DNA of 64,000 nt from Blastocystis hominis (Eukaryota; Sar; Bigyra; Opalinata; Blastocystidae), in contig NW_013171816.1 of assembly GCF_000151665.1 (NCBI RefSeq), positions 543,176-607,175 on the forward strand, given 5' to 3'. The translations under genes and the position numbers were made by a program. Numbering within the stretch: position 1 is the first letter of the stretch; each line of letters begins with the position of its first letter. Positions 1,893-63,729 of this stretch are shown one piece after another. Below the pieces are notes generated by a model, which did not search any database, was not told where the DNA came from, and saw only the letters and a program-made list of their open reading frames with translations.

Positions 1893-1900
1893 AACAAACA
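1893..1900 (-). terminator. TGTTTGTT motif of sphingomyelin-synthase-like gene
   Basis: Minus-strand octamer. Reading on the minus strand, a codon GAG is followed by T, then TCAT, then the octamer, so a transcript cleaved after that T would gain UAA from its tail. Confidence 0.75.
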
Positions 1901-1904
1901 ATGA

Positions 1905-3076
1905 ACTCACTCAGCCATCCCATGAAACAAATTAGCCATCTCGAAATATAAGGTAATTGAGCTTTGTCAGTCGCTACTTCAGCAAGCATCGATGACTCAC
2001 AAATCACCATCCACAACAAAACGACAATCAAAATCGCCATAAACACATCAACGGAATAATGAAATCGGCTCTACACTCAACCCTTCCAGCTACGCACACC
2101 ATAACAATCATATAACAGCACGCCAAGGCAACACTGAATGCTACCAAAAATAAAGGAACGAAGATATGAGCGTTTTCAGCGCGAATCATCGAGGCGTACG
2201 CCTACTGAGAACTCTCCCCAGCTCTGTACGCAAACAGCCGTGATGAGATAGCGAGTATGTCCGCTAAACAACATATCGCCGCTTGTTTCGATGTCTTGTG
2301 GATTGTGCAAACGAGTGAACGTGTAGTTTACAACCTGCGCGAGCGTGATCTCTTCTGGTTTCTGCTCTTCGGACGTGGTGTTAAGAACGTTAACAAGGTA
2401 GAGAGAGAGCAAAAAAAGATATGATCGACTCGGGTTATATTCACTGGGGTCGGGAAGACTGGTCATGCAAAAGATGAATGGGCGTAAAAGAGCCGTGATT
2501 CCTAACATGAAGAGAATTCGGCGAAGGAGAAGGAAATCATCGTTGTTGTTGATCATCAGAAACAGTGCGGAAAACACAAGTCCTCCAAGTAGGATGTTTA
2601 TGACTGCTTCTGTCTTCAACTTCCCAAAGAAAGGGACATTTAAGTATTGCTTCTACAATCAGCAAGAAACACGAGACCTCACTTCTTTGATAAAATCAAA
2701 CCCATAATCAGGAAGAGGAGTGGGAGGAGTTCTAGTTTAGAGGTGTAAATGGTACAAACCTGTTGAAGGAAATGTAGGTACCGCTCAATTCGTAAAATTC
2801 ACACAAGAGATAAAAGCAAAGACACATCTATTTGTTACCGCTACTACAGAAACCCACAAAAGTCTTGAGATGGTTCGGGTGATAAAAACCAAGCCCAAGT
2901 ATGATAGCTATGATCACAACAATCTGAGAGCACGAAATATATGATGCCTTATCTAAATTTCACTCCTTACGAAAATGTCAACTATTCAAACGAAAGGTTC
3001 CTACTGTAATAGGAACCAGAAGGAGAAGAATTATCGCGAGAAATACGTAAAACTCTGTTGAATACAGTTCTTCCAT
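1905..3076 (-). CDS. Sphingomyelin/ceramide phosphotransferase-like membrane protein
   Basis: Member of the sphingomyelin synthase family (PAP2-like), which moves a phospho-head group from a phospholipid to ceramide in Golgi or plasma membrane. Seen: ATG at 3076 (MEELYSTEFYVF), several membrane segments, then GDMLFSGHT (family motif D3) and, after an intron, SRFHYSVDV (motif D4), which together supply the catalytic His/His/Asp. Six introns of about 28-30 nt were removed by eye. No genomic stop follows the last conserved stretch directly: the frame runs to a TGA at 1875-1873, but the T at 1905 lies four bases before TGTTTGTT, so the stop is probably made by polyadenylation. Head-group specificity cannot be read. 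Confidence 0.82.
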
Positions 3077-3092
3077 CTTCAAAGAATTTATG

Positions 3093-3100
3093 AACAAACA
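3093..3100 (-). terminator. TGTTTGTT motif of Mei2-like gene
   Basis: The octamer lies about 40 bp past the Mei2-like stop and only 16 bp before the ATG of the next minus-strand gene. Confidence 0.7.
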
Positions 3101-3139
3101 CATACTCAAAAGACGAAAAGAATGCAAAAGGGTAAAATA

Positions 3140-4347
3140 TTAGTTTTTACGCATAGAAAAGTCAATTGGTGGCTTATAGCGGACCATCCTTCTTGTAGGT
3201 TTCCCATTATCATTCGTTATTTCTAGCTTAAAGAAAAGTGGGTGAAACTCCTCTTCCGACGTCATCACAGACCATTCGCTACAGTAGTCAATCAGATCCT
3301 TCTACTAGTAACCACAGCTACACTCCATTACAGAATCACTCTGCAAACGTCCGTAACAGATCTGACAGACCTTCTTACTCCGAGTATGCGGCCAACGACA
3401 ATTGTTATACTAGAAAATCACCCATATGCCACAAGCAACTACATTATCATACAAAACGCATACTGCGTCCAGATCCACCATATTCACATAGCCATAGCCC
3501 ATGTTACACTTTGTTTTCTGGTCTATTGGCAGATAAAGGAAATCATACATATCCTTGCACTTCTCATCAATGATCTGAACGAATGTCTTGCGTGAGTAGC
3601 TGTGCATTATGCGAGGAAATAATAAGCAGCCCTACCAGTTCGGAATGTTTCGGATCATCAACGTGGTGCGCTTATCCTCATGACGTCGGACTTTGTCAAT
3701 ATCCAAAGTACAATCAAGATCCGGATGCTTCGGATTGGGAACGAAAGAATCCGAATGAGAGGACATGGGAGTGGAACTTTTAGGGACTGTCATAAAAGGG
3801 TTGCTGTAGTTCGAGCCAATCACTGCCGCGTTGCTTGGAACATAATACCTAGGGATAGGAGGATACGTAGCAAAGTAGGATGGGTTCATAAACGAATTCG
3901 GAACCCGAGAAACAGGTGGAATACTCATAGGCATGTCACTTAAACCGCCCTGATTTGGAAACACTGATAATGTGCTTGATGGGGGCCGATACATAGAATT
4001 CTGGTAATAACTATCCGAGCAAGTAAAGTCTAAACCATTCCTATTATCTGAAACTGGATTATAATACATAGGGTCGCTTTCTATAGGCGATCTCATAGTT
4101 CCGATAAAATTCTAAACGGTAAGATTCACCGTGACAAAGAATCAACAGAACTATTTGAACCACCCATCGGAAATGATGACTGGTTAGTGAGTTGATACTC
4201 TCTCGAAGTATCTCCATTGCTGTAGCGATCTCCATTTATACTCAGGGATGGAAACTGCGCAAAGCCGGCTGACTACAATTCATACCAAACGCTCACGGAT
4301 ACAGGAGTCGGAGACCATTCTGCCGTAGAATATGAGGTTCCCTCCAT
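3140..4347 (-). CDS. Mei2-like RNA-binding protein (C-terminal Mei2 RRM)
   Basis: The C-terminal half is the special RRM of the fission-yeast Mei2/plant AML family: KRTTLMIRNIPN, then after an intron YSRKTFVQIIDE, YDFLYLPIDQKTKCNMGYGYVN and a final strand reading VCQICYGRLQ. The N-terminal half is disordered, rich in Ser, Pro, Asn and Tyr. The likely start is ATG 4347 (MEGTSYSTAEWSP); an in-frame stop lies upstream. About six introns; the one near 4090-4125 could be 18 or 38 nt. Stop TAA at 3142-3140. The family regulates meiosis and RNA fate; the role here is not known. Confidence 0.85.
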
Positions 4348-4602
4348 CCTACAATCCTCTAAACCCCTGTTAGCTCAACACTTTTCAAACACCTCAAAAT
4401 AATCTCTCGCTTAATGTATAGCTTTGCGACCAGAGCCATGCCCGGAAAATACACTTACAGATAGTTGGAAGTTAATAATTAAGCAATAATGTACTTTGAG
4501 CAAAAAAGGCTAGTTCCCTGTAGCTGATTTAAATTTAAAATCTATTTTTAGTTTGTGGATTATTTAGAGTCAATAGTGAATATCGAAAGCACCTGAAAAG
4601 AG

Positions 4603-7094
4603 ATGGCTCCAAATCAAAGGCGAGTATCTTTTCTCCCTCCTTCCGCAGATTCCCTCAACAAAGAAAACTCGATTCTCAATGATGACGAGAAAGAACGAGA
4701 GATGCGGCATGCTATTGTGATTTCGTTCATCTAAAGGAAAATCCAGAGACAAAGCCTAATTGCAGCTCGGCGACTTACTGAGAATCAGTCAAAACCAGAG
4801 CCGTTTCGAATTTGCTTCATGTTGAGTAATAGGAATCGTTCTGCAAAAATCGCTGCTATGTATGATGCGGTAATGAGACTTTCTAGCGAAAATGTGATAG
4901 TTCGGACTCTTTTTCATAAGTAGAAGATTAACCAAAAGAATACATGGAATTTGGATCTTATTAATCACATAGAAGACGTTTTACTGGATGGAAGGTGTTC
5001 GTTACCGAATTCCTTACCTCTAGCGAAAACCAAGAGCCCAACTTCCAAAAAGCGGGTACTACGCTTGATGCCTCGGTGAAAATTTATGGCTATCGAGTTG
5101 ACGATACCCTGCATACTGGTTATCGAATCTTGGATAATTTAAATCGCGGGGAACAATCAAAGCAGTCCGCAGAAACGTCCAAACCGCGTCATAAAGCTGA
5201 AAACGGAGCTGAAGGAAGCAGTAAAGCCGCGAGCACAATCGAAACAAATCTTCGAAACATCGAAATGGACCCTTCCGACTTCCAATTCAACGCAGATCCG
5301 CTCTTTCATCTCATGAGTCGCCAGTTTGATGAGGGAGGCGTGAAGGGATTGCTGCTCTCGAACCTAGTAAAGCGTTTGGATTCGTCGTTTGATCAAAGAG
5401 TGTCGATCCAGATTGCACGGTCGTGTTCGACTCCAATCAACTCATCGAAATCGCAGAAGAGTTGAAGCCCGGAGCGCAATCCCAGGCGGAATCCCAGGCG
5501 GAATCCCAATCAGAATCGTTCGTTTCTTCGTTTAATACGTTTGTGGATACCGAGGAGTTGATGGTGTTGGATTGGCCTTGCTTTGATTCTAGCATTCCGC
5601 CACGAAGAAAGAGAAAAAGCCGCTCTCGGAGATTCTAGAACTGCCCATCTGCCCCGATCTTTCTCTTCTCATCAACGAAATTCTCGCGTATGATCCTTCC
5701 GCTGTTCTCTGTGTTTTGTTCCCTGTGATCTGCAGAGCGATCTGCGGTCCCCAATGGAAATCGAGGATCCTTCCAATCGCTCGCTCTCCGTTCTGGAAGA
5801 TTATCACGTGGAGCTCGATGACGAAGTGGCGCCGATTCCCGTTCTCTCCGAAGCGGAAGTGTCTTTCGAAGCGCCAAACATGTCCATCCAAACCGACCCT
5901 CTTCAATCAACGCAGAGCCTTGAAAACGCAGAGCCTTTCCCGATAAACACACCCCTTTCCTCCACCAATAGCAATCAAAATATCGAAACAATGGGCACGA
6001 ACTCTACTCCCAATAATAGAAATAACAATAACAATAACAATAATAGCATTGAAACAATGATTGCTAATTCCACTCCCACCACCTATTCCTATTTTACACC
6101 CAGCGATTTGGTGACTGCGTGGGCAGGTCCTTCGTATTGGAAACTTCGGAAAGGCGCAAAACCGAAGAAGGCTCCGGTAGAACGCGTTCAGAAAGCGAAA
6201 AAGAAGCAGATTATCGAGTTTTCGAAAGAGTTGGTGGTGAAGCCTACTGCTCTTTTTCCAGCCGTGAAACGAACGTCCGATCTGACGATCAACGATTCCA
6301 CTTTTGAAAATGGGAGTTTGCATGTCCTCCCAGATGACTATCACTACAATATCGATGTTGCACTTCGCTTTACGATTTCATGAATAGCGATTACAGCATC
6401 TCGAGTGTCGTCCAGATATTTCTCTTCGTCGAATTGTCCGTTTCGACACGTCCTCGGGCGCGTCGCTCACTCCCGATGAATGGGAAGTTTCTCCTCATAA
6501 CGTCGATCTTGGCGGCTGCGCACTCGATAATCCAATGGATTTGATTCCGAATGAGATCACTGAAATGCCTGCGATTGATGTCGATGAAGACTCGCTCGTT
6601 TTGTCAACGCATCCTGACCTGGAAGTGAGTCATGCCGGGTTTATTAGCGAGCTGAAAGAAAGCGGTAAAAGCAACGCTTTGATGCTATGTAGAAACGGAA
6701 ACGTCGAACGGCCTTGGGTCCTTCGTGAAGGCAGATCGAGTTGTTGAAGAGATTAAGATTCAGTATGCAAGCAAATCGACTCAGGTTGATATTCACAGAC
6801 TCAAAGTGAGAATGGAAGGTGGGTTTGTTTGATAGGCCACGATTTGGAAAGTGGTTGAACGAGAACTCCGGGAACGAGACGCGGTTTCTTTTATGGAAGT
6901 AGTGCGAATGGTGAAGGAATCATCGTTTTCGGATACTGCGATCCAGTTTTTCTTTATCTGTATTTTGCATATATCCTATGACGTGAAAATCAAATCGTGT
7001 TATCATCCTTCACGAGCAGTTAGCGAACGAAAAAGGGTTGAAGCTCGACCAGTCAAATCAGAAAGAGATTTTCATTCGGATGTCTTCTCAGTAG
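4603..7094 (+). CDS. Condensin complex subunit 2 (CAP-H/Barren kleisin)
   Basis: Kleisin that bridges the SMC2-SMC4 heads of condensin and is needed for mitotic chromosome compaction. After removal of about ten introns of 28-37 nt, the protein starts MAPNQRRVSFLPPSAD and shows the Barren landmarks in order: LNDDEKEREMRH near the N terminus, KINQKNTWNLDLINHIED, NFQKAGTTLDASVKIYGYRVD, an acidic/Asn-rich middle, WAGPSYWKLRK, RPDISLRR, and the winged-helix end with YASKSTQVDIHRLK and ATIWKVV. An Asn run near 6020-6050 is low complexity. The TAG stop at 7092-7094 is followed eight bases later by a long TTTG repeat. Confidence 0.92.
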
Positions 7095-7102
7095 AATGTG
7101 TT

Positions 7103-7174
7103 TTTGTTTGTTTGTTTGTTTGTTTGTTTGTTTGTTTGTTTGTTTGTTTGTTTGTTTGTTTGTTTGTTTGTTTG
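7103..7174. repeat. (TTTG)18 microsatellite at the end of the condensin gene
   Basis: Eighteen perfect TTTG units. Every unit pair contains the poly(A) octamer TGTTTGTT, so the 3' signal of the CAP-H gene is present many times in tandem. The minus-strand neighbour ends at the other edge. Confidence 0.95.
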
Positions 7175-7178
7175 AGCA

Positions 7179-7186
7179 TACAAACA
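7179..7186 (-). terminator. TGTTTGTA motif of the minus-strand unknown gene
   Basis: On the minus strand the frame reads TAC TTT, then T, GCCT and TGTTTGTA: the T-N4-motif layout that would create UAA on polyadenylation. Confidence 0.6.
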
Positions 7187-7190
7187 AGGC

Positions 7191-7863
7191 AAAAGTACCT
7201 TGAATACTTTTCCAACAAAGTAGCATGCAATTCGCGAAGCATGTTCATGTTCTCAACTGATGGCGAATTCTCATATTGCTGGATCAAACTGGATAACTCC
7301 TACATACCCAAAGCAATCGAATCCCGTACAGCTATGTTATCTTGAAGTGTAAACACACATGGATTTCGTCCTTGCTGGAATTTCGCAGCAATTCCTTTTA
7401 AACTACCTAAAAACAAAGAAACCTCTTCTATATAGTCCGAAGAAAACGCACTGCTCTTCCCACAATTCAAGTGTTCTGAAGAAGACTGGGACGTTGTTGC
7501 TATTCATCAAAAAAGCAAAAAACACTTACCACCTTCACTTCTAAAGGAGGAGTTCTTGCGAGGGATTTCAATATAATAATCATCTGCAGTAACATGACAC
7601 TTGAGTAAACTTTTATAATTTTCATAATCAGGAGCAGAAAAGCTAATCGATCACATAAAATTTTCAAAATAAACACCTTTTAAAAGTAATGGCTTTATCC
7701 TCCAGTAAAACGGGATCAGGCAAATATTTTTGAAATAGCATTCCATCGATTAGTATAGAATCTGCGTATCACTTCAATGGGAAGCGTAGTTACCTTGATC
7801 ATTTATGCGAGAATTATCAGTAAAAAATCCAACATCTGATGCATCATGTAATCGATTCATCAT
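7191..7863 (-). CDS. Unrecognised protein, about 190 residues
   Basis: I do not recognise the family. After removal of introns of about 30 nt (including 30 nt at the LQDNIA/ELSSLIQQ junction) a continuous frame runs from MMNRLHDASDVGFFTDN through DSILIDGMLFQKYLPDPVL, SAPDYENYKSLLKC, a Ser-rich linker, VSLFLGSLKGIAAKFQQG and a helical C terminus with LRELHATLLEKYSR. No membrane segment or signal peptide is seen. Lack of a genomic stop before the 3' motif suggests a polyadenylation-made stop at 7191. Exons further upstream (7900-8235) are possible. Confidence 0.5.
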
Positions 7864-8448
7864 CTTGGACACGGTATCGGCTCACTCGAAGAAAATGAAT
7901 GGCAATTGGAAGTGAGGCACTATGATATTTAAATTTTGTATTTCTTGAAAAGAATTATTTAGTAAAATTGCAGGGACAATTGTTGAAGGGTAATTAACCA
8001 CACACTATGAATGTGGTATTCACATTCGTATTCAAATTGTTTGCACTTTCGTATCACAGACTTAAAACGATCAATTGTTATTTTCACTGTAATTTCAAAT
8101 ATAGAGGACGGTAGGGTAAAGTAGTGTGTATTTTTAGTCTGTAGAAGTATGATACAGAATAAATAACCAAAAACTGAGTCAAGTGGACCAACTTGGAAGA
8201 TTGTTCCATATGGATAGCATAATATCATTGACACGGAGCCTCTTCTTAGAGGATATGACGTAGAGTCGGATCCTCAGTGTAGGATATCACTTTTTGTGTT
8301 TCTTTTCATAGTTTCTTGTTTTTTTCTTCAATTTACGTATCTGTATCGTGGTGCTTGTGTATTTCTGCATTCAAACAGGAAAAATTATAAAGCTTGTATT
8401 CATTATTCTTGGCGTTTGACACATTTATCACTTTTTCCATTCATTTCG
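7864..8448. other. AT-rich intergenic region, possible 5' exons
   Basis: A minus-strand open frame (7959-8234) with hydrophobic stretches exists, but I could not join it convincingly to the gene at 7191-7863, nor match it to a family. Treat as intergenic with weak coding potential. Confidence 0.3.
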
Positions 8449-8609: not shown

Positions 8610-8614
8610 TGAAG

Positions 8615-10796: not shown

Positions 10797-10804
10797 AACA
10801 AACA
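10797..10804 (-). terminator. TGTTTGTT motif of SAP-domain gene
   Basis: Minus strand reads GTT, T, GATG, TGTTTGTT: the T of the genomic TGA stop is exactly four bases before the octamer. Confidence 0.75.
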
Positions 10805-10806
10805 CA

Positions 10807-13068
10807 TCAAACATCATCCGCTTCGATCTTGGCAAGACTCATTCGCGTCACTTCACTCATCGGCTCATTCTCCCAGTTCCCCGAGGAACCACGTGCATTT
10901 GGAATGTGTCTGTCGTTCGGGAAGATATCTAAACTCAGAAACCAATCCAACACGCCAAACCCTTTAGATCGCACGTCTCGATCGGCGCGAATATAATATC
11001 AGCCTGAATGAACTACCCATCACTCTCCAGCTCCACTCCTACTTGCTGTCTCCGCAAATACTCATCCAGCAGTTTCCCCTCGTACCACGTTTCCACTCTA
11101 CACCTCACACACTCCCTCTCCTCCCACTCCTCTTCCCTGGGCTGCGGTGGCTGCGGCGGTTGCGGTGGCTGCGGCGCAGGATTGATCACGCGTTGCGGCG
11201 CTTTCTGCGGCGATGCCACGCGCACCGGGGACGCCGCGCCCTTCTGCATGGCCTCATTAACTTTGTGCTTGGATTGGGTCGGTGGTGGCGGGATGGGCGG
11301 CGTCTGCGACGAAGCTGGAGTTACGGGCGCTTTGGCAAGCGTCGGCGAGACGGCCGGCTTCAAGGGCGTTTGCGACTTGGACGCAGAGGCGACGGGGGAT
11401 TTGGCGGGCTGCTGGACGGGGAGCTTCGTGGGAGTGGCGGCAATGGCGGGCTTGGAGGGCGTTACGGACTTGGGCGTGGCGGCAGGCGTGGATTTGACGG
11501 GGGTGGGAGCGACGCGCGGCGAAGCCGATCCGTTCCAAGAACGATTCAATGCCTGGGGCGAAGAACGAGGCGAGGAGGGAGTCAGGCGAGAAGACGCAGG
11601 GCGTGGAGACGAAGAAGAGGAAGACTGTCCTTGGAAGAAGTTTTTGAGATTGGCGATGGAGGGAGAGACCGGAGAACCCGAACGTCCGCCCTCGCGAAGC
11701 CGATTCTTCTTCTCTTCTTCCTCTTGGCGCAGCTGGCGAAGCCGCTCTTCGTCCTCGTTCTTCAGCTGAATCAGTCCTTCCAAGCGCGAAGACGGCACGG
11801 CTTTATCGGACTATCATCGAGACCGCTCCGCAGCCCCACTTTGGCGATGTCGTCTTTGACTAACAGCTCGATCATGTCGGTTCGCGATCCCACCGCGGTG
11901 ATGCCGCGTCGCTGGCACTCGCTCACGAGCTGATCCGAGGTGAAGTGTCGGTAAGTTTGCGTGATGTCGTAGTTCGAAGCGGGCTTGGAGACGCTGGAAG
12001 CAGCAGGCGAAGACGGCGGGGCGGGAGGAGGCGACGGCGTGGTGGGCATGTGATTGATTCGAGACGAGGGAGCGGCGGAGGGAATGGCCGGTGCTGGCCC
12101 CAGAGCACGCGGAGAGGCACTTTGGGAGGTGGGAGATTTGGCGGAAGGGGAGGCGGAGGGGGCTGTGGAGGCAGAGACGGAAGCGGAGGCGGAGGCGTTG
12201 AAGGAAGGAACGCGCGTGAGAGAACTGGGCGGAGAGAGCAAGCGCGATGGAACAGTGCTGGGAGGAGTGTTCTTCGGGGTGTTGGAAGTGGATCCCTTTG
12301 AAACACTGGATGGAACTCCCTTCGGCGTGTTGAGAGCATTGTTTTTGGGCGTGCTGAGAGCATTGCCTTTGGGTGTGTTGAGCGCATTGCCTTTGGGCAT
12401 ATTTGTTGCATTTACTTTCTGACCATTTGATGCATTTAAGGTGTTGGGTACACTAATGCCAGTTCCATTGGGAACAACTGGAATTCGGGACTCGACGGGC
12501 TTCCTAGGTGTAGCTCCAAAATGTGGCTGCCGCGGAGAACGTTCACCGTTTAAATCCTCGCTCACCTCGCGAATAGGATCAAGCTTCCCTCCCTAAATAA
12601 TAATATTCATATAAATAAAATCCACCTTCTGGACAGAGTCAGATTCCAATTCCAGTTGAATTAGCTTATGTTGATCCACCTAAACATTTAAATAGAAAAC
12701 CGTCCCAAACGCATGACTTTAACCACTTTTGAATTTCTGCATACGCAGAATCGCAATTTCTACGTGCCTTTTGTAAGGCTTCCTAAATCTCACACAGACA
12801 GAGTATATGCAACATCCATCTTCAATGACATGGAATTCACATCAAACCTTGTAGCACTCTGCATTGGATCTGGTTGATTTAGAAATATTGAGAAGAAAAG
12901 TTGTGGGATCCCACCGAATGAAAAGAAGAGCTTATTACGTGTATTATTAATGTTGGGAGTGTGTATTCTATTTAGGCGCACAAGTTGTGAAAAATACGAG
13001 AGTGTCTTGTTATACTGACTACTAGAACGTTGAAAAGGGGGAGTTTCGTTGGCCATTGATCTCGTCAT
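10807..13068 (-). CDS. SAP-like domain protein with Ser/Pro/Ala-rich linkers
   Basis: Function not recognised. The spliced protein (about 600 residues) has an N-terminal helical part ([16 protein letters not shown] ... [15 protein letters not shown]), a long low-complexity region with repeated short units of the form N-A-L-N-T-P-K-G, a SAP-like helix-extension-helix ([18 protein letters not shown] ... [11 protein letters not shown]), a charged coiled coil ([18 protein letters not shown]), a Pro-rich stretch with [10 protein letters not shown], and a conserved-looking tail ending KIEADDV. SAP domains usually bind DNA or RNA. Introns of 29-33 nt were removed. The first ATG lies 15 bp from the start codon of the divergent GMD gene; an internal Met is also possible. 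Confidence 0.6.
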
Positions 13069-21639: not shown

Positions 21640-22659
21640 ATGTTCTCATTGTGGAGAACTCCATTGAGAATACTGGGATCAAGAGCAATGTCTAGTCTAG
21701 CAAAAGCGATTCAAGAAACATGGAATAGAGGAATTCAGGCCGATGACATCATTTTCATGAATACTACGCGTAATATCATTACGGAAGATGGGGCCGATGT
21801 AAGCGAATACTCGGATGGGTGATTCTTGATAGTTCATTGTGTTACTTTTGAACGATGAGCGATTTGATAAGAAGAAATCGAACATCAAAGCTGAGAAGAA
21901 GGAGATCGTCGATCCATTTAGCACCGAGAACAGAGATCCGCTGTTAGTCGTGAAGGAGATAGAGAGTCATACTTTAATGCTAAATAAGTTTCCTGTGCTA
22001 AAGAATCATGTTGGGCGTTTGCGTGCTTATTGATATAGTGTGTGTTGGTGACCAATGAGTTCAAAAGTCAATTTGATCCTCTCACTCTTGAGGATTTCAA
22101 AAGTGTTTCTTCTGTTCTCAGCGAAGTTCCTTCGTTGGTGTTCTACAATTGTGGCGTTGATTCAGGAGCAAGTCAGCCACATAAGCACATACAAGTATCG
22201 ATTGTTTGTGTTGATTTTATCCACAGCTCATTCCATTCTCTCAGTATGAGTCCAATAAATGTCCTTTTGATAAGATTATGGAGAAGCAACCAATCGAGCT
22301 TGACTCTCACTCGATTGGGCATTGTCCTCTTTATAAGTTTCCGCACTTTCTGTGCAGAATCAGTGAAGAAGAGAAGACTTCTCCTACCTCCCTTTTTAGC
22401 TATTATCAGAGATTGTTGGAGTGCAATCACTACACATCCTATAATTTCTTAATTACTCGGGATTATATGATGCTTGTTCCACGGAGCTGCGTATTTTCTT
22501 GGCTGGTTGGTTTATTTCTAGGAGTCATGGGAACATTTCGGCATAAACAGTTTAGGGTTCGCTGGAAGCTTTTTTGTGAGGAGCGAAGAAATGCTACACA
22601 AACTAAAGGAAATTGGTCCGTTGAAAGTGCTCCAGAATGTAGCTGTTAAGGATACTTAA
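21640..22659 (+). CDS. Ap4A phosphorylase / ATP adenylyltransferase
   Basis: Splits diadenosine tetraphosphate with phosphate to ATP plus ADP (Apa1/Apa2 family, GHMH/HIT-like). Seen: LLVVKEIESHTLMLNKFPVL, LVTNEFKSQFDPLTLEDF, and the catalytic block FYNCGVDSGASQPHKHIQ with the H-x-H-x-Q triad; then CNHYTSYNFLITRDYMMLVP and a C terminus with INSLGFAGSFFVRS. Four introns of 29-34 nt. The leader MFSLWRTPLRILGSRAMSSL looks like an organelle presequence, but translation from the second Met would give a cytosolic form. About 290 residues, usual size. Confidence 0.92.
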
Positions 22660-22668
22660 TGTATTCAT

Positions 22669-22676
22669 TGTTTGTT
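22669..22676 (+). terminator. TGTTTGTT motif of Ap4A phosphorylase gene
   Basis: Ends two bases before the start codon of the ESCRT-III gene at 22679. Confidence 0.75.
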
Positions 22677-22678
22677 CG

Positions 22679-23472
22679 ATGAGTTTTTTTGGAAAGGTTA
22701 AGGGGAGAATCGGGAGTGGATTCTCAAAGATCAAGCAGATATCACTCTTTCACAAGAAGAGTCAGCAAACACAAGAAGACCCGCAAGTTCAAATTACGGA
22801 TGTAGATATAACAATTGCAAGATTAAAGACACAGAAACGAAAGATTAATGAGCAACTGCGAAAAGTAAGAAATGAGTCTACAATAGGATTTAGACAAAAG
22901 TAGAATCGGCAGAGTATTATGAAAAGGCAATAGCTGAACGAAAGAGTGGAAATAAGGTATTGTTGACCATTTTTGTGAATCGTAGGAATTAGCGGCAAAA
23001 TACTATAGTTTTTATAAGTAGAGCTCACGGTCACTGATAATCAACTAGAGAAAAAGAAGAGCGTGTTGCTTTCCTAACCAATTCTCTTATAAAACTCGAT
23101 CAACAAGTTTAAACTTGTTTGGTGGTTAAAATGCAGATTGATTTAGTTACAAATTCACAAGATATGAAAGACTATGTTGATGTTTTGCAAAGTTCTGTTC
23201 GTTGCATTGATAATCTTACCGAATCCATTGGCGACGTGAATAAAGTGATGGATGACGTGCATCGAGTGAGCTCAATGATTAACGACGTTGATCAAACTCT
23301 GTTTGATACAACAGATCTCGCCGAGCAGCTCTCTCTTGATGACGTGGAGCTTGAATTAAATGAGGCTTCAGATAAAATAGAACTGGAGAATCTTCCTGAA
23401 GTTCCTGCCAATGAACCTTGTTCGAGCAAAGTGTCTAGTGAGACGCGGCCAATTATGGAGTTGGAAACATAA
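22679..23472 (+). CDS. ESCRT-III subunit (Snf7/CHMP family)
   Basis: Small coiled-coil subunit that polymerises on membranes for budding away from the cytosol and for scission. Start MSFFGKVKGRIGSGFSK, basic alpha-1 region, then ITDVDITIARLKTQKRKINE, VESAEYYEKAIAERKSGNK, TNSLIKLDQQ, the alpha-4/5 block SSVRCIDNLTESIGDVNKVM and an acidic C terminus with SLDDVELELNEASDKIELE. About four introns; the third (near 23010-23052) could be 43 nt. The ITxVD...LKTQRRKL pattern favours the Vps20/CHMP6 or Snf7/CHMP4 branch, but I cannot decide. TAA 23470-23472 overlaps the T-N4-octamer layout. Confidence 0.75.
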
Positions 23473-23474
23473 GT

Positions 23475-23482
23475 TGTTTGTC
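23475..23482 (+). terminator. TGTTTGTC motif of ESCRT-III gene
   Basis: Layout T-AAGT-TGTTTGTC, with T the first base of the genomic TAA. Confidence 0.7.
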
Positions 23483-42420: not shown

Positions 42421-42426
42421 AAAAAA
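42421..42426 (-). terminator. T6 Pol III terminator of tRNA-Cys
   Basis: Six T residues on the minus strand begin directly after the tRNA 3' end; 11 bp further lies the RbfA start codon. Confidence 0.7.
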
Positions 42427-42497
42427 GCGACCAGGCGGGATTGAACCGTCGACCTCTCAATCTGCAATCGAATGCTCTACCACTGAGCTATAGTCGC
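42427..42497 (-). tRNA. tRNA-Cys (GCA)
   Basis: 71-nt cloverleaf on the minus strand. Acceptor GCGACTA pairs with TGGTCGC; D arm GCTC-AGTGGTA-GAGC; anticodon stem TTCGA/TTGAG around loop TTGCAGA, anticodon GCA; T arm GACGG-TTCAATC-CCGCC with one A-C mismatch. A box and B box are present (GTTCAATCC). No intron, no encoded CCA. It sits between the divergent RbfA and PP2C genes. Confidence 0.95.
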
Positions 42498-54846: not shown

Positions 54847-54856
54847 TAGTAATCGC

Positions 54857-54864: not shown

Positions 54865-54912
54865 TGAATTTGCCTTTTGTCTGCTCTTGTTGGTTTTGGT
54901 CTAGGTCGTTGG

Positions 54913-55614
54913 ACCTGTACCTGTACCTGTACCTGTACCTGTACCTGTACCTGTACCTGTACCTGTACCTGTACCTGTACCTGTACCTGTACCTGTACCT
55001 GTACCTGTACCTGTACCTGTACCTGTACCTGTACCTGTACCTGTACCTGTACCTGTACCTGTACCTGTACCTGTACCTGTACCTGTACCTGTACCTGTAC
55101 CTGTACCTGTACCTGTACCTGTACCTGTACCTGTACCTGTACCTGTACCTGTACCTGTACCTGTACCTGTACCTGTACCTGTACCTGTACCTGTACCTGT
55201 ACCTGTACCTGTACCTGTACCTGTACCTGTACCTGTACCTGTACCTGTACCTGTACCTGTACCTGTACCTGTACCTGTACCTGTACCTGTACCTGTACCT
55301 GTACCTGTACCTGTACCTGTACCTGTACCTGTACCTGTACCTGTACCTGTACCTGTACCTGTACCTGTACCTGTACCTGTACCTGTACCTGTACCTGTAC
55401 CTGTACCTGTACCTGTACCTGTACCTGTACCTGTACCTGTACCTGTACCTGTACCTGTACCTGTACCTGTACCTGTACCTGTACCTGTACCTGTACCTGT
55501 ACCTGTACCTGTACCTGTACCTGTACCTGTACCTGTACCTGTACCTGTACCTGTACCTGTACCTGTACCTGTACCTGTACCTGTACCTGTACCTGTACCT
55601 GTACCTGTACCTGT
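54913..55614. repeat. (ACCTGT)117 perfect hexanucleotide array
   Basis: 702 bp of perfect ACCTGT units, followed by decayed units ACCTGC, ACCTAC, ACCTGC. All six frames are open (Leu-Tyr, Pro-Val, Cys-Thr and their complements), so long frames here are artefacts. It lies between the RING-BRCT 3' motif and the S1/P1 nuclease. Confidence 0.97.
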
Positions 55615-55644
55615 ACCTGCACCTACACCTGCACCTGAAGAACC

Positions 55645-56743
55645 AAATTCGCTTTTGTGTTTTTCTTACTACTAGAAGCTGGAATATATGCATGGGGATG
55701 TTGCTCTTCCTTGTTTCGTTCACGTGAAGGTAATGTTCATCGCCTATCGATTGAGTTGGCAAAGAAGATGATGACAGAGCAGGAAATTGTATTCTGTGGC
55801 CTGTTTTGCTTCCTTTGTAGGAGAGGCTTACTACTCACATCTCGAATTCGCCCGTTGTCCAATCGTATGCCTCCTACCCGTATGACGCAACCGATACTGT
55901 TTTTGGAATGGATGTTTCAATAATGCATAGGTTTGCATTCCTGATATGATTAAGAGGAAGCGTCAATATAGATACACTTACTATTGGCATTTCTACGACA
56001 TAAACTATAATGTTGAAGTCACATCGTCGTCGCTAAATCGTAGACAAGCGAATGGTCTCCAGATGAGTCTGGTTTTCCCCCGGACCTGTTTTCCTTAGAA
56101 AAGAACAACCTCTATTCTGCACTCTTCAACGAGTTGTACACTATTAATAGTGAGTGGGACAACAAGGAGGATTCTTTTCTTTTTTTAACCCATCTGGTCG
56201 GGGATATGATGCAACCTCTTCATGTGACGCAACTTGTGAGTAAGGAGTATCCGAAAGGCGACCGAGGCGGTTTGTTGTACACGTTGCACGGTTGTAAGAA
56301 GAAGAATTTGCATCTGTTTGCAGATGATCTCGGAAATTATTTCCAGAAAAGAGAGGTATGGGTATTTCGTGGATTGAACATAGTTTAAACAAATTGGTAA
56401 AGTAGCTGACACCATGCACTTGCTCTGTGTTCAGTAGGAATTCTGTAGCACTTTGAATCGTAGGAAGAATTGGTATGGTTCTGATACGTTGGAAGTGGGG
56501 GTGTTCAATCTGATTCAGAACTGGATAATGGAGTCTCATTACAGAGGTCGTGAAATCTACCAGGTACAAACAGTTGTTGTGGTTGAAGGGTAGATTTTGA
56601 ATGGTTCTCATTCTTTTTCAAAATCCGCGAAGGAAGAGACTCAAGCAATCTTGCTTCATAGTGTTTGTCGCGCTGCAAGCGCTATTACTCTAACTTTACG
56701 ACATCTTTTTAACGATACTTGGTTCCTAATTTTTATTGTTTGA
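55645..56743 (+). CDS. S1/P1-type zinc nuclease, secreted; 5' end unresolved
   Basis: Single-strand nuclease/3'-nucleotidase family that uses three zinc ions. The hydrophobic leader FAFVFFLLLEAGIYA precedes Trp (AWG), the residue that becomes the N-terminal zinc ligand after signal cleavage. A 30-nt intron, then VHRLSIELAKKMM, PYDATDTVCIPDMIKRKRQY, YYWHFYDINYN, SFLFLTHLVGDMMQPLHVT and KKKNLHLFADDLG match the family metal sites. About six introns of 28-32 nt; the one near 56400-56460 is not settled. No ATG in frame precedes the leader: the frame opens just after the ACCTGT array. Ends at TGA 56741 or, by polyadenylation, at T 56732. Confidence 0.72.
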
Positions 56744-56744
56744 T
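56737..56744 (+). terminator. TGTTTGAT motif overlapping the next start codon
   Basis: Layout T-TTAT-TGTTTGAT with the T at codon position 1 of the nuclease frame. The octamer overlaps the ATG of the HEM gene (56743-56745). Confidence 0.6.
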
Positions 56745-59700
56745 GGATCCACAAAAGGTCGACTTACTAATTAATTATTTGAAGTTATTTAAGGTGGGGA
56801 AAGCGAATTCGTACTTTTGTAGCAACACGCATTCTATCTCGATTCAGAAAGCAGTTTTTTCCGAAACATACCTGATTCCAGTATATACCACTGCTCGGAG
56901 CTTGCCAAGATCCGTTCTTATGTCCATTTTGCTTTCCTTTGCTAACTTGGTAGTTAGAATCCTCTATTAGTAATTTCGACTCGAAAGATTTTAAAGCAAT
57001 TAAAGGATATGAATGGTTAGTTGTAAATCATGAAAAGTACAAGACGGAGATTTTGGATCACTATTCAAAGCTGGAATGTCTCTCGTTTCTCTTTATTTTT
57101 ACGAATAGCTTGCTATCTGCTTCTGGATTCTGCTCTCAAACAACTTCCGCAGTTACTCGTTCCGTTTTCCGCTCCTCTGGATCTTCTGCCTGTGGATTTC
57201 CTCTGTTCCTGTGTTTCGCTGAGCATCCAGCTTCAGAACCTTCCCTTTGCAATGATCATCGGTCTGAAGTGGATGACAGACACAATTCTGGGTTGTGAAA
57301 GTCCCCACAAGGATGAGTTGGCTCCGTACTGCTCGTCGAACTGCTTGGAGCAGCTTCGTGAGATGTGCACGCCATACAGTACGTTTTGCTTGTTCGCTTG
57401 TTTTCTAGTTTCCGTGATTGATGGGATGCTTCATGGCCCGGTGTGGAGAGAATACCAAGCCTACCAGTCCGTGTGCAGAGCCAGTTCTTCGCTGCAATCC
57501 TTTCTATTCCACAAATCGGAGGAAGAAGCGCACTTGCCAGCGTCGTTCATGCAGCCGCCTTGGACTACGCTTGCCATGAAAACGACTTCTCTTTATCGAT
57601 TCTCCATGCTCCTATTGCTTCATCCGCCCTTGCTGCTGACGGAGGCCCAGCAATCTAGTATCATTCTCATAACGATGCTGGCGGACGTGTAATGGAAGGG
57701 AGGAGGCGTGATCGATATAGGGGGGTTGAGTGCATTTCGTCGGGAATGGTGTGTAATGTGTATTCGGAACTGAGTGGAGCCATATCTAAAATCCCCAAAA
57801 CGAAGGAGAACAAGCAGGATTTGGCTCAGCTTCAGAAGACGATCAAGAATCTGAACTGCGCTTCCATTCATAAGTGGGCCTTGCTCTGTGTGTGAGATTA
57901 TTTTTGTAGAGGATATCGTGAGAATCTGATCGAGCTTGTGGAACATTGGATCGATAACATTGTGAGAGACACAGGAATCGTGGCTCCTTACATTTTTGTG
58001 ATTCTCTCCATTCTGTCAACCGCACTTTATGAGTTGGAGTGGAGCTGTGTGAATAGTGTTCGCACAAAACGGCAACTCTTCGGTTCATCGGAGCGTGTTT
58101 GCGAAATGGCAACGCGTGATGACGATACCTTCCCTGTTCTGTTGAAGAGCGTCTTGCAACTGCGTCGATTGCTACTGCAGTACGCGCCACTGATTGAGCA
58201 GTATCTCGTTGGTGTTCGCGACTTGCTCAAGAAGGAAATCACGGTGCTTCCGCAGTTGGCAAAAGCGGATAGAATCGATGAGGACGATTGGATTCGCGTT
58301 TTGTTCCGTTTGCAGAACCAATCTCTGCAGACACAGCGAAGAGCGTTGTATTTGTGCTATTTGATAACGGCCTGTTCTGACATCCCGCGGTGGCTCACCG
58401 ATCGCTCCGAAATTCGCTGCATGGGAAGCTTGTATCAGTTGTTGCGATCGTTCTGCGAGAAATTCTACTACCGAACCAATCAGGACTATTCCTACATCTT
58501 TCTGTTCATCGATTTGGCAGATATGATTGAGCATTCGCGCTTCTGTCCAGAGCAGTCCACGTACTATCAAGATACGTACAACACGATCCAAGATTTGGTG
58601 GATCGTGTGGCGGAAATCCAGCAGGTTCTGTGGAACAATGGACATAGTTGGGAGGGAGTGGATCGCGAAGAACTGGAACAATATGCTGTGTTGTTGACGC
58701 GATATCGTCGCATCGAACTGAAAGAAGATGTCATCGTGTAGGGAATAGTATCCCCATTCTCGAATCTAGTCCAATGGATATGCTGTCGGAAGCGTTGCTC
58801 GAGCAATTTTTGAAAGTGCTGAGAACCTCTCTGCAAGGCAATGTTTTACCTGGGTCTGTTATGGAGCTAATTCGGTCATTCCACCAGTCATTGCTTGTGC
58901 TGAGATCGGTGATTTCGCAGCTGAATGTTGCCCACATCGTACGCTCGCTGGTTGGTTGCGCACTAGATGGAACGATGTCGGAATGCGTGGATGTCCGTGA
59001 ACAGCGAAGAGAGCGAAGCGAACGATTCTGCTTCTACGAGGAATAATAATAATAATAATAACAATAACACAAGAGGAATTAGTCTCTTCGACTACTTTGC
59101 CTCGCAAGTTCAGAGCTATATCGTGGAATTTCGAGCGAGAAGTGTGATGGATAGGATCGAATTATCGACGATCCCTCGGGAGGCTTTAGTCTCGTCTCCA
59201 GGCGATTTTACTGCAATGGCGCGTGCTGCGCGCTCTTTCTCCCTGAGGAAATAAAGCAGCTGTTTCTCCTCATCGGCAGCTCTGGGATGATGTCGCTGAT
59301 CCGTCTGCTAGAGGAGGAGATGAAAAGGATGGTGGGGAAGCAAATCGACGAGTTCTGGGAGCAGATGAAATACGTGGGCTTGATGGAGTTTATGATTCAC
59401 GTCGTTTACGATGCCTGTACGGAGGCGATGAAGGAAAGTCACGGGGATATCTGGTCGTTCTGCGCGGGCGTGCAGGCGGAGTTGGGCGATTCGTCGGCTG
59501 AATGGATCGAGGCGCGCGCCTCCTTGTTTGTGGAGCCCAAAGTTCCGTTCTGTATCGATGAATCGTGCGCATATTTGGTGGGCGTGATCCAGCAACACTC
59601 GGTGATCTCTGCCGACCAGCTGCAATCCTTCACGCAGTCGCTGGCGATTTGGAGCGCGTGCGCTCAGCAAGCGACGGGCGTGTGGACGGGACATGTGCTG

Positions 59701-60168
59701 GAAGGATTTCATGGGATCGCGCTGATTCTGAGCGCCTTGCACCAATCCTTTGAAACGTTTTGCTATGACGTTTTGAATGGAGTGCTGAACAGCGATCGGA
59801 AAGACGTGGGGTGTGAAAGGAAGAAATGATGTCTAGAAAGGCCGCTATTTGAAAGCCGTGCAAACTGTCTCCCAGTTTTTCTATCAGTGTCCGAAGTTAA
59901 GGAAGTCGATGCCCCAAGCATGCTTTTTGCGTTCTTTGGCGTATTCATGGAAATCAGAGTTTTATTTAGGGTGTACGAGGGGCAAGATGTGTTGGATAGT
60001 GAAACTTCAGAAAGTGACTGCTTTGTTTGTTTGCTCAAACATGCTAATCAAAGTTACCTTCCTGAATGCGCTCCACCGCCTTCATTCTATGAGATTCCAT
60101 CAACTTGGGAAGACCTAATAGATTCGAGACGAAGTTATCGTAGATCACACGCGACAACTACCAAATAA
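56743..60168 (+). CDS. NCKAP1/HEM (NAP1)-like subunit of the WAVE complex
   Basis: Large helical scaffold of the WAVE regulatory complex that controls Arp2/3 actin branching. Start MDPQKVDLLINYLKLFK. Blocks that align with NCKAP1: LPFAMIIGLKWMTDTILGC, VEHWIDNIVRDTGIVAPYIF, LLKSVLQLRRLLLQYAPLIE, LFRLQNQSLQTQRRALYLCY, YSYIFLFIDLADMIEH, MMSLIRLLEEEMKRMVGKQI, GVWTGHVLEGFHGIALILSA and C-terminal VQTVSQFFYHMLFAFFGVFM. More than ten introns of 28-38 nt; exons near 56900-57060 and 57650-57700 are uncertain. A poly-Asn tract (59045-59070) is species-specific. Stop TAA 60166-60168, overlapping the REEP gene end. Confidence 0.68.
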
Positions 60169-60710
60169 ACACGTACAAGAGAAGCCACATTCACATCCTT
60201 TGAAACACAAAGAAGCAGTAACGATATTTTGAAGGGATAGAAAAAGGGAAGGCTGCATCAAAGTAAACTTTCATTCATACAAGAAGGAAATGTGAGGAAT
60301 GGAGATATCAACAAGGTAGAGCAGACCAAAAATCGTCCAATATACAAGGCTATACTGTTACAAATAAAAGAACATATCATACAATTCGACATACTCTTCG
60401 TGCGAATGAAATCGCATGATCGACAAGGTACGATAAATCGGGTATGCGCAACCGATGATATTCCTGCAATGTTATCGAAAGAGGTCGCGAAAACTTACGC
60501 AAGCATCGAGGGACCAAAGATAACGAAGAAGAAGATGCTACTCAGTAAAACCGAAATGCTCACGAGTAAGGAAACACGCACATTGACCTTCTTGCTGATA
60601 TTCATCAATGATGCTACACATCACGCTTAAGCTTTAAAATGACGGTAGTTTTCTAGTTGGCTGTCTACTAATGACAGTTTCTCTTCGATTTTGTTGAGAA
60701 CGATTTCCAT
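60135..60710 (-). CDS. REEP5/Yop1/HVA22-type ER membrane-shaping protein
   Basis: Reticulon-like hairpin protein that bends ER tubules. Five short exons rebuild: MEIVLNKIEEKLSLVDSQLE, ISKKVNVRVSLLVSISVLLS, FFFVIFGPSMLA, NIIGCAYPIYRTLSIMRFHS (the family 'CNLIGFxYPAYxSxKAI' block), YSLVYWTIFGLLYLVDISI (the 'TYWVVYxFFxxxE' block) and LPFFYPFKISLLLLC. Introns 30, 35, 28 and 28 nt. No single ORF is long enough to reveal it. TAA at 60137-60135 lies inside the last exon of the HEM gene on the other strand. Confidence 0.85.
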
Positions 60711-61303
60711 GTAAAAATAGTGTATCGAGTCAATTTGCAAAAAGAGCAGTTAGACCGAGACGTACAACTTGGCAGAATAAAGAATGGAGTGTCTCTTATA
60801 GTCAGCCATGTTGGGAAGTGAGTCGAAAGGGAATGAAGGTGTTCATTATATACGTAATAAGTATTACTCAGAATTAATGGTTCAAGGATTGTTGAAAGAA
60901 TTAATTCAATTTGATTATTAGTATATATTTTGATAATGGCAATTAATATGTGATTTTCACTAATTCTGAATTAATGTTAAGAGAATTATTAGATTACTAC
61001 TTCTGATGAGCTGTTTATGGTAAATGTGACTTATTATAATCTACTCACAATTGAAAGATGTGTTGTAATACTCGGTATTGAATAGTTTTGAATTAGTTTC
61101 TATGGAATGATGAGTGAAAATTAAAAATAGTAATAATTAATAAGAATAAATCCTAGGAATTAATATTTGCAACATTATTGTTGAGATTATTAGATTGCAA
61201 TTAATAATTGGATTATTTCCAGACTTATTATAGAATTTTGCACAAATTTTCTATCATTTCTATCACAAACAACAATGAACATAATTCTACTGGTAAAATA
61301 CAC
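60711..61303. other. Very AT-rich intergenic region
   Basis: Rich in AATTAAT-type short palindromes, with no frame that fits a protein family. It should hold the REEP promoter and nothing else that I can see. Confidence 0.45.
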
Positions 61304-61311
61304 TTCAAACA
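61304..61311 (-). terminator. TGTTTGAA motif of ubiquitin-like-domain gene
   Basis: Minus strand reads GCA, T, CATC, TGTTTGAA; the T is at codon position 1. Confidence 0.6.
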
Positions 61312-63729
61312 GATGATGCTTCTTGGGGGTTGCGTCTAGGGCGTCGATGAAAGCGTCTATTGGCTTTATTCCCATGCTCTGCTTGATTGTTCGCGTTTGA
61401 TGGAGCGGATTGAACTGGTGGAGCAGTTTGCTTCGGTTTGCTCATTTGTGGTGCTGGACGAGTTGCTTGAGCGTGCTGATCGGGTTGTGGATTCTCATAA
61501 TTCTTCTTTCCTTTGCCAGTTCTGTTTCTTTGCTTTTTATTTTGAGTGGGTTGAGTAGGTTGAGTAGGCTGAGTGGGTTGAGTAGGCTGAGTAGGTTGAG
61601 TAAACTGAGCTGGCTGAGCTGGCTGAGCTGGCTGAGCTGGCTGAAGCGGCTGAAGTGGCTGTGGTTTGAAAACAGGTGTTGGTTGAGGGAATTGAACTGG
61701 TATTGGCTGATCGGGTTGTTGATCTTCATAATACTTCTTTCCTTTTCTAGTTCTACTTCTTTGCTTTTTAGGTTGAGTGGGTTGAGTAGGTTGAGTAGGC
61801 TGAGTAGGCTGAGTAGGCTGAACTGGCTGTGGTTTGAAAATGGGTGTTGGTTGATTGACTTGTGGATTTTCAGTATTCTTCTTTCCCTTTTCATTCCGAT
61901 TCCTTGGACGCTCTGGTTGAGCGGGTTGAGTAGGTTGAGTAGGTTGAGCGGGTTGAGCGGGTTGAGCGGGTTGTACTGGCTGTGGTTTGAAAATGGGTTT
62001 TAATTGAGGCGCGTTTTTCTCCTGTCTTTTCAACCTCGGCATTTTTGGAACGACTTGTGGACCTTCTGTCCGCTCTTGGTTCGTCTTCTTTGTAGTGCCC
62101 ACAAAAGGCTCTTCAATCTCGTCTCGCGCCTTCGAAATCATTCTCTGATTACACTTCTCTATAAATTGCTGGGGAGCCAGGAGAACGGATCCCGATTCTT
62201 CTGTCACCAAATAAAACTTGCCATCCTTGCTCTGTTCCAATATCATTTTGCTTAGCGCTTCCATCTCCTCCTTACTCGGGTCATGAGCCCATTTCACTAC
62301 CGGTCAACCACCAAACAAAACAAAAACGGGGCGTCGTCACTTCGTAATACTCTGTGTATGCGTTATATTTGTTCACGATGTAATCCGTTTCAGCGAAGCA
62401 CGGAGGACAAACTCCCAAATCGAACGCTTGCACCGTGTTGTTATCCTGCAATCGATCCATCGAAATCGAGGTCGAAGCCACGAATTTCTCGTCTTCATAC
62501 ACCACCAGCATGCGTTCCTGTTTGAAATGATCCACAATGCAGTCGTAAAGCTTCACCTCGTTGTCCTGCGTGTAGTTCCCCGCGGGAATCACGAACCAGG
62601 CTCCGTGATAATTCACTTCAATCAGCAATCCCTAACGATCACCACACTCTGCCAAAATCCATACTTCCTTCACCACAAATCGCTGCCCTTCCTTCAAAAA
62701 GAATCGAGACAACGGCCGCGGCGTTTGGCTCAGCGACAGAACAGAACCGTTGATCGAAATGCAATAGGATTGAGGCGTTTCCAGCATTCTCCACTTCAAT
62801 AAACCCACAAAAAGCGAATTCCTACCACTTCGAGAAGCACTTCGTTCATGTTTTGGAAGGATTCAATGCGCAAATGGTAGGTGTCTGATTCGGTTTCCAC
62901 CGTCAGCATCATCATAATCGTGAGAACGTGGTCATTCTCCAGTCCCAACGCATCCAGAGACTCGGAGTACCGCGATTCCTCAATGTCGAAATTGTGCATA
63001 AACAGCAAATAGCTTCGATGGATGCCCAAATGATTCTGTGCGATGATTCGGTCAACGAGCAAATACTTCGAAGGCTGAAACGATATCATCAAACGGAGAT
63101 TGGTGGTTGCAATTGATCACAAACTGCTTATTTGCGATCCAAGCGCACAGTTTCATGTCTGGGTTGTCGGATATGTTCAGAATGGTTCTAATCGTCAACG
63201 CACTCTGATTTACTCACGACTCTTCCTCCTTTTCTTTTCTCATTGTATTGCTATTATCTTCCCTCTCTTCCTCCTCTTCCTCAGTTTCCTCCTCTTCCTC
63301 CGCTTCCTCCTCACTACTCGAGTTTGAAATGGGTGAAGAACTATTTTTGCTATAACTAGATCGCTCAAGTAAGTCGTCATCACAAGCTTGGTTATCTTCA
63401 TCCAAATCGGATTCAATAGAATGTTCATCGCTCCTACTCTCGGAATCGTTTATATCATTAGATTCATCCCGTTCAGAATACTTGTTTGACTCATAACCAT
63501 CATCACTATTTATCCCGATCAGATCATCAATATCGGATGCTTCAGCGTCATCATCATGATTCACAGATAAATCGCTACCGTAACTTGAAATGGGAGAAGA
63601 CCTGGATATCACAAAAACAATCATACAGTACAGTTCTTCTTGCTCACTATAACTGTATTCACTTGAATAACTCGCCAAACTCTCTTCAGGATCATCAGTT
63701 GAAGAGGAGAGAATTGGAAGATCATCCAC
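61305..63729 (-). CDS. Protein with three tandem ubiquitin/SUMO-like domains and a Gln/Pro tail
   Basis: Not a known named protein. Order: acidic Ser/Asp/Glu-rich N terminus (1-165, e.g. ERDESNDINDSESRSDEHSI); domain 1, KLCAWIANKQFVINCNHQSP ... SRYSESLDALGLENDHVLTI, which fits the Rad60/NIP45 SUMO-like pattern; domain 2, TYHLRIESFQNMNEVLLEVW ... KEGQRFVVKE; domain 3, LIEVNYHGAWFVIPAGNYTQ ... SISMDRLQDNNTVQAFD; a basic linker; then a 250-residue tail of QPAQPTQP and FKPQP units mixed with basic RNRxxKGKK blocks. Introns of about 30-35 nt were removed. Ends at TGA 61307-61305 or at T 61316 by polyadenylation. A SUMO-linked genome-stability role is an inference. Confidence 0.55.
61530..61980 (-). 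repeat. GGTTGAGTA/GGCTGAGTA tandem repeats
   Basis: 9-bp units in three clusters coding Gln-Pro-Thr and Gln-Pro-Ala triplets; the clusters themselves recur with a basic spacer, so there is a higher-order repeat of about 150 bp. Confidence 0.85.

What the first reader, a model, noticed from the sequence alone, without database searches (positions are those of the whole stretch)
1893..61316. Stop codons apparently made or fixed by polyadenylation: T-N4-TGTTTGTT in seven genes
In seven genes a T at codon position 1 is followed by exactly four bases and then TGTTTGTT or a close form: T at 1905 (sphingomyelin-synthase-like), 7191 (unknown), 10809 (SAP), 21616 (E2), 23470 (ESCRT-III), 56732 (S1/P1) and 61316 (ubiquitin-like). 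Cleavage after that T plus a poly(A) tail gives UAA. In three of them (10809, 21616, 23470) a genomic stop starts at that same T; in four (1905, 7191, 56732, 61316) there is no genomic stop there. Such stop creation is known in Blastocystis; the constant spacing and codon phase across one window is the direct observation.
Basis: partly seen in the sequence, partly recalled or inferred. Interest (0 to 1): 0.85.

Follow-up and report, generated by a model that had tools for sequence, protein, structure and literature searches.

The report
Known Blastocystis poly(A)-made stop codons
In this gut microbe some genes lack a stop codon in the DNA and get one when the messenger RNA is cut after a T and given its poly(A) tail; this looks real here, but it has been published since 2014.

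Summary
The window lies in an 18.7 Mb Blastocystis nuclear genome, subtype 7-like in size and at one gene compared. All seven T-N4-octamer sites exist as described: three octamers exact, three with one mismatch, one with two. Over 97 exact octamers (260 kb elsewhere plus the window), coding phase upstream puts the T at codon position 1 more often than chance (33/12/11 of 56 sites with a clear phase, p = 2.6e-4). Octamers with mismatches show no such excess overall. T1905 is the best case: the subtype 1 ortholog ends where that T would end the protein. At 7191 the public B. hominis model probably uses a false intron. At 10809, 21616 and 23470 a genomic stop sits at the cut. 56732 and 61316 are weak: an in-frame genomic TGA lies inside the 'motif', and 61316 has a better octamer downstream. 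The mechanism is that of Klimes et al. 2014 and Gentekaki et al. 2017: already known. Two small additions: genomic stops at the cut T are no commoner than base composition predicts (11 vs 10.8 in 56 sites), and at 22664 the window encodes a stop where three metagenomic relatives read through in frame and would need a created one. No poly(A) reads were available.

The parts
1893..1905 (-). T1905|TCAT|TGTTTGTT: end of a PAP2_C (sphingomyelin-synthase-like) gene; no genomic stop at the T, next in-frame stop 30 nt on; predicted created UAA
   Evidence: subtype 1 ortholog P0001 ends at the same place
7179..7191 (-). T7191|GCCT|TGTTTGTA: end of a gene without Pfam match; genomic frame would run 39 codons on, mostly through an (AACA)n repeat; predicted created UAA
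   Evidence: public B. hominis model P0008 ends elsewhere
10797..10809 (-). T10809|GATG|TGTTTGTT: end of an INCENP-like gene with genomic TGA at the cut; tail would make UAA
21616..21628 (+). T21616|AACT|TGTTTGTT: end of an E2 ubiquitin-conjugating-enzyme gene with genomic TAA at the cut
   Evidence: weak coding score 8.7; UQ_con on a hand-joined fragment
23470..23482 (+). T23470|AAGT|TGTTTGTC: end of an ESCRT-III (Snf7) gene with genomic TAA at the cut; one-mismatch octamer
56732..56744 (+). T56732|TTAT|TGTTTGAT: end of an S1/P1-nuclease gene; undecided, because the octamer variant carries an in-frame genomic TGA 9 nt after the T
   Evidence: TGTTTGAW shows little positional excess
61304..61316 (-). 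T61316|CATC|TGTTTGAA: two mismatches, in-frame genomic TGA 9 nt after the T, and a closer octamer (TGTTTGTG) starting 45 nt after the T; probably not a cut site
22657..22681 (+). Relatives read this stretch open in frame
1185..1197 (+).

Best explanation
These are 3' ends of Blastocystis nuclear genes. A GU-rich downstream element (UGUUUGUU) fixes cleavage four nucleotides upstream of itself. Because the cut is so precise, a U at codon position 1 just before it plus the first two A's of the tail makes UAA, whether the DNA there has a stop or a sense codon; other genes have an ordinary stop a few bases earlier. Shown here: the motif and spacing, the bias of exact octamers to coding phase 0, and an ortholog end at 1905. 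Shown by others: poly(A) sites from ESTs in subtype 7 and loss of reporter expression when the motif and two upstream T's are mutated. Inferred: that each listed T in this window is used, and which factor reads the element.
For: Exact octamers, 97 sites in 260 kb plus window: clear coding phase in 56, split 33/12/11 with T at -5 in 23/4/6 (p = 2.6e-4). Six of seven decoy octamers were not so skewed (for example AACAAACA 13/12/19); the seventh, TTGTTTGT, overlaps the motif and shows the same signal one base shifted, 8/30/11. T at -5 in 56 of 97, p = 9.6e-6. Subtype 1 protein P0001 ends FMRWLNM opposite FMGWLSE of T1905, without the ten residues the genomic frame would add. Subtype 4 model P0003 runs on into WD40 repeats, the chimera type described in print. 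Of 97 exact sites 12 were best read as created stops and 58 as a genomic stop up to 80 nt upstream, close to the published 15%. Klimes 2014: 2,333 of 2,419 mapped poly(A) sites have the motif exactly four nucleotides downstream with up to two substitutions.
Against: No transcript reads here. One- and two-mismatch octamers show no phase-0 excess (75/85/67 and 501/764/519), though four of the seven sites are of that kind. T at -5 by phase is only p = 0.06 (23 of 33 vs 10 of 23). A simple open-frame-length test gave no phase-0 preference in the sample (16 sites of 40+ codons in phase 1, 14 in phase 0). A free-ended gene finder chose none of the exact octamers as ends. DL ortholog P0002, marked partial, stops six residues earlier and does not help.
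Confidence: 0.92

Rival explanations
1. The seven-site list is partly a selection effect: octamer-like words are common, and with two mismatches allowed a reader will find T-N4-octamer at many gene ends. Real created stops exist in the genome, but 56732 and 61316, and perhaps others with mismatches, are ordinary ends.
For: One site with up to two mismatches per 117 nt of strand. No phase-0 excess for mismatched octamers. TGTTTGAW has stop-like TRA at -5 in 140 places and at -6 in 125, p = 0.39. In-frame TGA inside the octamer at both sites; TGTTTGTG further on at 61316.
Against: Klimes 2014 accepts up to two substitutions in mapped sites. 56732 is the closest octamer in the stretch from 30 nt before to 300 nt after that T. 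1905, 10809 and 21616 are exact, and TGTTTGTV shows an excess of 167 vs 106, p = 2.7e-4.
Confidence: 0.35
2. The genes end at their later genomic stops (or through a further intron), and the T-N4-octamer is only a poly(A) signal in coincidental phase.
For: In-frame genomic stops do exist 30, 117, 9 and 9 nt after the T at 1905, 7191, 56732 and 61316. The public B. hominis model for the 7191 gene reaches a stop through a 32-nt GTAG...CCAG stretch of ordinary intron length.
Against: The subtype 1 ortholog of 1905 lacks the extension. The 7191 extension is mostly a simple repeat. The stretch spliced out in the public 7191 model is read as protein, unchanged, in P0007, P0009 and P0010, although those are ORF predictions without transcripts. 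Mapped ESTs in subtype 7 place the cut before the octamer.
Confidence: 0.06

Closest known systems
Polyadenylation-created termination codons of Blastocystis nuclear genes (Klimes et al. 2014, PMC4159000; Gentekaki et al. 2017, PMC5608401)
   Same: Same genus, same octamer, same four-nucleotide spacing, U|AA created at the cut, same kinds of gene-model error
   Different: Nothing in kind. This window adds individual genes, a comparison of genomic stops at the cut with base composition, and one site (22664) where encoded and created stops seem to alternate between relatives
Incomplete stop codons of animal mitochondrial mRNAs and Tyr-to-stop conversion (PAY*) in a few mammalian genes, as described in the introduction of Klimes 2014
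   Same: A poly(A) tail completes U or UA to UAA
   Different: Organellar genes, or alternative isoforms of genes that also have a genomic stop; no fixed downstream GU element four bases from the cut is described for them there

Membership tests
Blastocystis polyadenylation-created termination codons | Blastocystis nuclear genome | tested here: met
   Every hit with a source name is Blastocystis: three, one; P0008 (B. hominis) agrees with the window translation but for one residue at an exon junction, up to a divergent tail. Genome 18.7 Mb
Blastocystis polyadenylation-created termination codons | TGTTTGTT or close form exactly four nucleotides after the cut T | tested here: met
   Spacing right at seven of seven sites; octamer exact at three, one mismatch at three, two at one
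Blastocystis polyadenylation-created termination codons | T in codon position 1 of the gene upstream | tested here: met
   Clear phase 0 at six of seven sites, not at 61316; 33/12/11 over 56 exact sites
Blastocystis polyadenylation-created termination codons | No genomic stop at the cut in a subset of genes, with the protein ending there | tested here: met
   1905: ortholog end agrees. 7191: probable. 56732 and 61316: inconclusive
Blastocystis polyadenylation-created termination codons | Poly(A) tail attached directly after the T in mRNA | not testable with these tools
   No transcript reads on hand
Blastocystis polyadenylation-created termination codons | Short CSTF2 ortholog (RRM and hinge only) | tested here: inconclusive
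   Hinge match at C1:100012-100170 whose frame ends soon after; CSTF_C not found, but none of the 14 control genomes rang either
Blastocystis polyadenylation-created termination codons | No conserved AAUAAA-like element upstream of the cut | not tested
   Stated in Klimes 2014; not examined here

The most novel reading that the evidence does not exclude
In this lineage the cleavage site, not the stop codon, is the conserved unit that defines a gene's end. The two bases after the cut T drift freely, so genomic stops there are incidental, and encoded and created stops replace one another between close relatives at the same poly(A) site, as seems to have happened at 22664 by a one-base change of length.
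Probability: 0.5. Interest if true: 0.4.

Novelty: already known. Interest (0 to 1): 0.2.

Why it matters
If genomic stops at the cut are truly incidental, stop codons in these genes are no longer under selection in the DNA, and that could be tested across subtypes.

Tried and rejected
A Viterbi gene finder with ends allowed at motifs chose 0 ends at 98 exact octamers, 3 at 557 one-mismatch octamers and 1 at a decoy, because cheap introns let it fuse genes (the script then failed on saving). It was replaced by a local test of coding phase upstream of each motif. Open-frame length alone did not separate phases in the sample (medians 14, 14, 9 codons for 77 exact sites). Ends of 176 long ORFs in the sample showed 3 octamers (up to one mismatch) at the expected distance against a mean of 0.44 per position, and 53 in the window showed none: too few, since many long ORFs end in introns.

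The whole-genome spacing peak of TRA before exact octamers (T at -5 483, -6 185, -4 293, -8 380) is not proof of stops: it partly reflects preference for T and then G at the cut, and the lists for -4 and -8 contain TGATTG-type repeats. The tool's own control, the pattern read backwards, gave 164, 278, 160 and 279 for these, and 181 for TRANNTGTTTGTV, more than the 167 real matches; it is a poor control here because the octamer read backwards (TTGTTTGT) is nearly the same word, but it does not help the claim. The -6 list for TGTTTGAW holds a repeated sequence (TGAAGGTGTTTGAT), which raises that control.

A scan of viral contigs for the Ap4A/ESCRT junction found no relative. A paper search for Proteromonas with polyadenylation found none. 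Rfam on the window found one tRNA.

Rows dropped: octamers in TGTT-type arrays, sites near sequence ends, and sites with N upstream (10,787 N in the 260 kb sample). 41 of 97 exact sites had no clear phase and are not in the phase counts. One pair of sample sites (positions 249676 + and 13939 -) has the same context and the same scores and is probably a duplication; both were counted, in phase 1.
Full report
What is there. The window is G000:C2:543176-607175 of an 18,707,701-base, 40-contig genome. Every hit with a source name is Blastocystis: subtype 1 ATCC 50177/Nand II, strain DL and subtype 4, and B. hominis. B. hominis P0008 agrees with the window's translation except for one residue at an exon junction, up to a divergent tail. 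Introns in my models are mostly 28-34 nt. So this is Blastocystis, subtype 7 or very close to it on this evidence; the subtype was not typed directly.

The seven sites. Coordinates, strands and spacings are right. Octamers are exact at 1905, 10809 and 21616, have one mismatch at 7191, 23470 and 56732, and two at 61316. Genomic stops start at the T in 10809, 21616 and 23470. Gene models forced to end at each T in phase 0 gave coding scores at six of seven sites; at 1905, 7191 and 56732 the other phases gave none, at 10809 and 23470 another phase scored nearly as well, and at 61316 slightly better; 21616 gave no model and 8.7 in the local test. Pfam: PAP2_C 4e-12 (1905), INCENP_ARK-bind 1.2e-4 and SAP 0.003 (10809), Snf7 2.5e-8 (23470), S1-P1 1.1e-15 (56732), none for 7191 and 61316 at E <= 0.01; UQ_con 1.2e-23 for the E2, on a hand-joined fragment.

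Is it more than chance? For exact octamers, yes. Of 97 exact sites outside TGTT arrays (77 in the sample, 20 in the window), 56 had a clear coding phase: 33, 12 and 11 in phases 0, 1 and 2, with T at -5 in 23, 4 and 6 (phase p = 2.6e-4, T by phase p = 0.06). The sample alone gives T 19/3/4 and not T 5/7/3; the window alone T 4/1/2 and not T 5/1/2. Six of seven decoys were not so skewed; the seventh overlaps the motif and shows the same signal shifted by one base. With one or two mismatches there is no phase-0 excess (75/85/67 and 501/764/519; the latter leans to phase 1), so such sites need other evidence. By TRA at -5 against -6 in the whole genome, exact octamers give 483 vs 185, TGTTTGTV 167 vs 106 and TGTTTGAW 140 vs 125 (p). 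These figures partly reflect base preference at the cut, and the tool's backward-pattern control does not support the TGTTTGTV figure.

Site by site. 1905 is the best: subtype 1 P0001 ends FMRWLNM opposite FMGWLSE, without the ten residues that the genomic frame would add; DL P0002 (marked partial) stops six residues earlier; subtype 4 P0003 runs on into WD40 repeats. 7191: P0008 leaves through a 32-nt stretch that begins GTAG and ends CCAG and reaches a stop just after 7340, but P0007, P0009 and P0010 carry that stretch as protein, unchanged (GSLKGIAAKF), so the public end looks artificial and T7191 remains the best end. Against this, those relatives are ORF predictions, and no relative covered the last exon. 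10809, 21616 and 23470 are ends with a stop at the cut. 56732 and 61316 carry TGTTTGA, which puts TGA in frame 9 nt after the T; at 61316 TGTTTGTG starts 45 nt after the T, so an ordinary stop with a short untranslated end is likelier there.

At 22664 the Ap4A-phosphorylase gene has a genomic TAA 7 nt before the predicted cut, an exact octamer, and the ESCRT-III start codon 15 nt after the cut T. Three metagenomic relatives (P0004-P0006) read the Ap4A end in frame into FIVCSMSFFGKV. For P0004 there are 9 nt where the window has 10, and P0005 and P0006 have the same number of residues by eye. They would therefore need a created stop; their DNA and transcripts were not seen. T1185 has TGA at the cut and an exact octamer, but an ambiguous gene end; 60019 (T|AA) and 47308 (TA|A) are ambiguous candidates for created stops.

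Rough frequency. Of 97 exact sites, 10 were best read as T|AA, 2 as TA|A or TG|A, 58 as a genomic stop up to 80 nt upstream, 8 as open through and 19 were unassigned. The stop class is favoured by having many options, so 12 of 70 is only a rough check against the published 15%.

Genomic stops at the cut. In 56 exact sites with T at -5, 11 have a stop there and 10.8 are expected from the make-up of the next two positions. That fits the idea that the bases after the cut do not matter, but the sample is small and includes sites that are not gene ends. A is rare at -4 (11 of 97) and T common at -1 (57 of 97). PMC4360255 already notes U before the tail and a non-A after it in B. hominis (passages).

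Literature. Klimes 2014 (PMC4159000; parts 1 and 2 of 3 read) maps poly(A) sites of 2,419 subtype 7 genes by ESTs: 372 with created stops, 90 more where UAG or UGA becomes UAA, and the motif exactly four nucleotides downstream with up to two substitutions in 2,333. Gentekaki 2017 (PMC5608401; passages) reports 26% of subtype 1 genes. PMC6395660 (passages) reports 324-fold lower reporter signal when the motif and two upstream T's are mutated, and 148-fold lower with a 3' end that lacks the motif. PMC9896827 (one passage) restates the phenomenon. PMC4159010 was seen only in a listing. I saw no report of the 22664 turnover or of the stop-frequency comparison, but only the searches were made, in an open-licence library, mostly by listing.

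Machinery. A CSTF2 hinge match lies at C1:100012-100170, and its frame ends in a genomic stop soon after, in line with the short protein of Klimes 2014. The test for the C-terminal domain was negative but silent in all controls. Suf (CstF77) family matches exist, 13 in all, exon by exon. Which factor reads the element is not known from this work.

Verdict. Real for exact octamers, well supported at 1905, supported at 7191, weak at 56732 and 61316, and already known as a phenomenon.

Noticed in passing
window 22657-22681 (+): The Ap4A-phosphorylase end, its poly(A) octamer and the ESCRT-III start codon lie within 25 nt; relatives P0004-P0006 are open in frame across this junction.
   Followed up: partly
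window about 7337-7440 (-): Public B. hominis protein P0008 splices out a 32-nt stretch that relatives keep as protein, and ends in a short unrelated tail: a probable gene-model error.
   Followed up: partly
protein P0003 (subtype 4): The PAP2_C gene is fused to a WD40-repeat gene in the public subtype 4 model, the chimera type expected where a created stop is missed.
   Followed up: partly
   Followed up: no
G000:C1 about 100565 (-): The gene just upstream of the CSTF2-hinge gene seems itself to end by a created stop (T before CATT and an exact octamer, phase 0; phase 2 scores 21.3 against 25.9).
   Followed up: no
window about 54900-55650 (+): A long run of alternating Leu-Tyr codons lies between the S1/P1 gene and the coding sequence before it; coordinates approximate, gene structure not resolved.
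   Followed up: no
window 42426-42497 (-): An ordinary tRNA gene (Rfam RF00005), the only Rfam match at gathering score.
   Followed up: no
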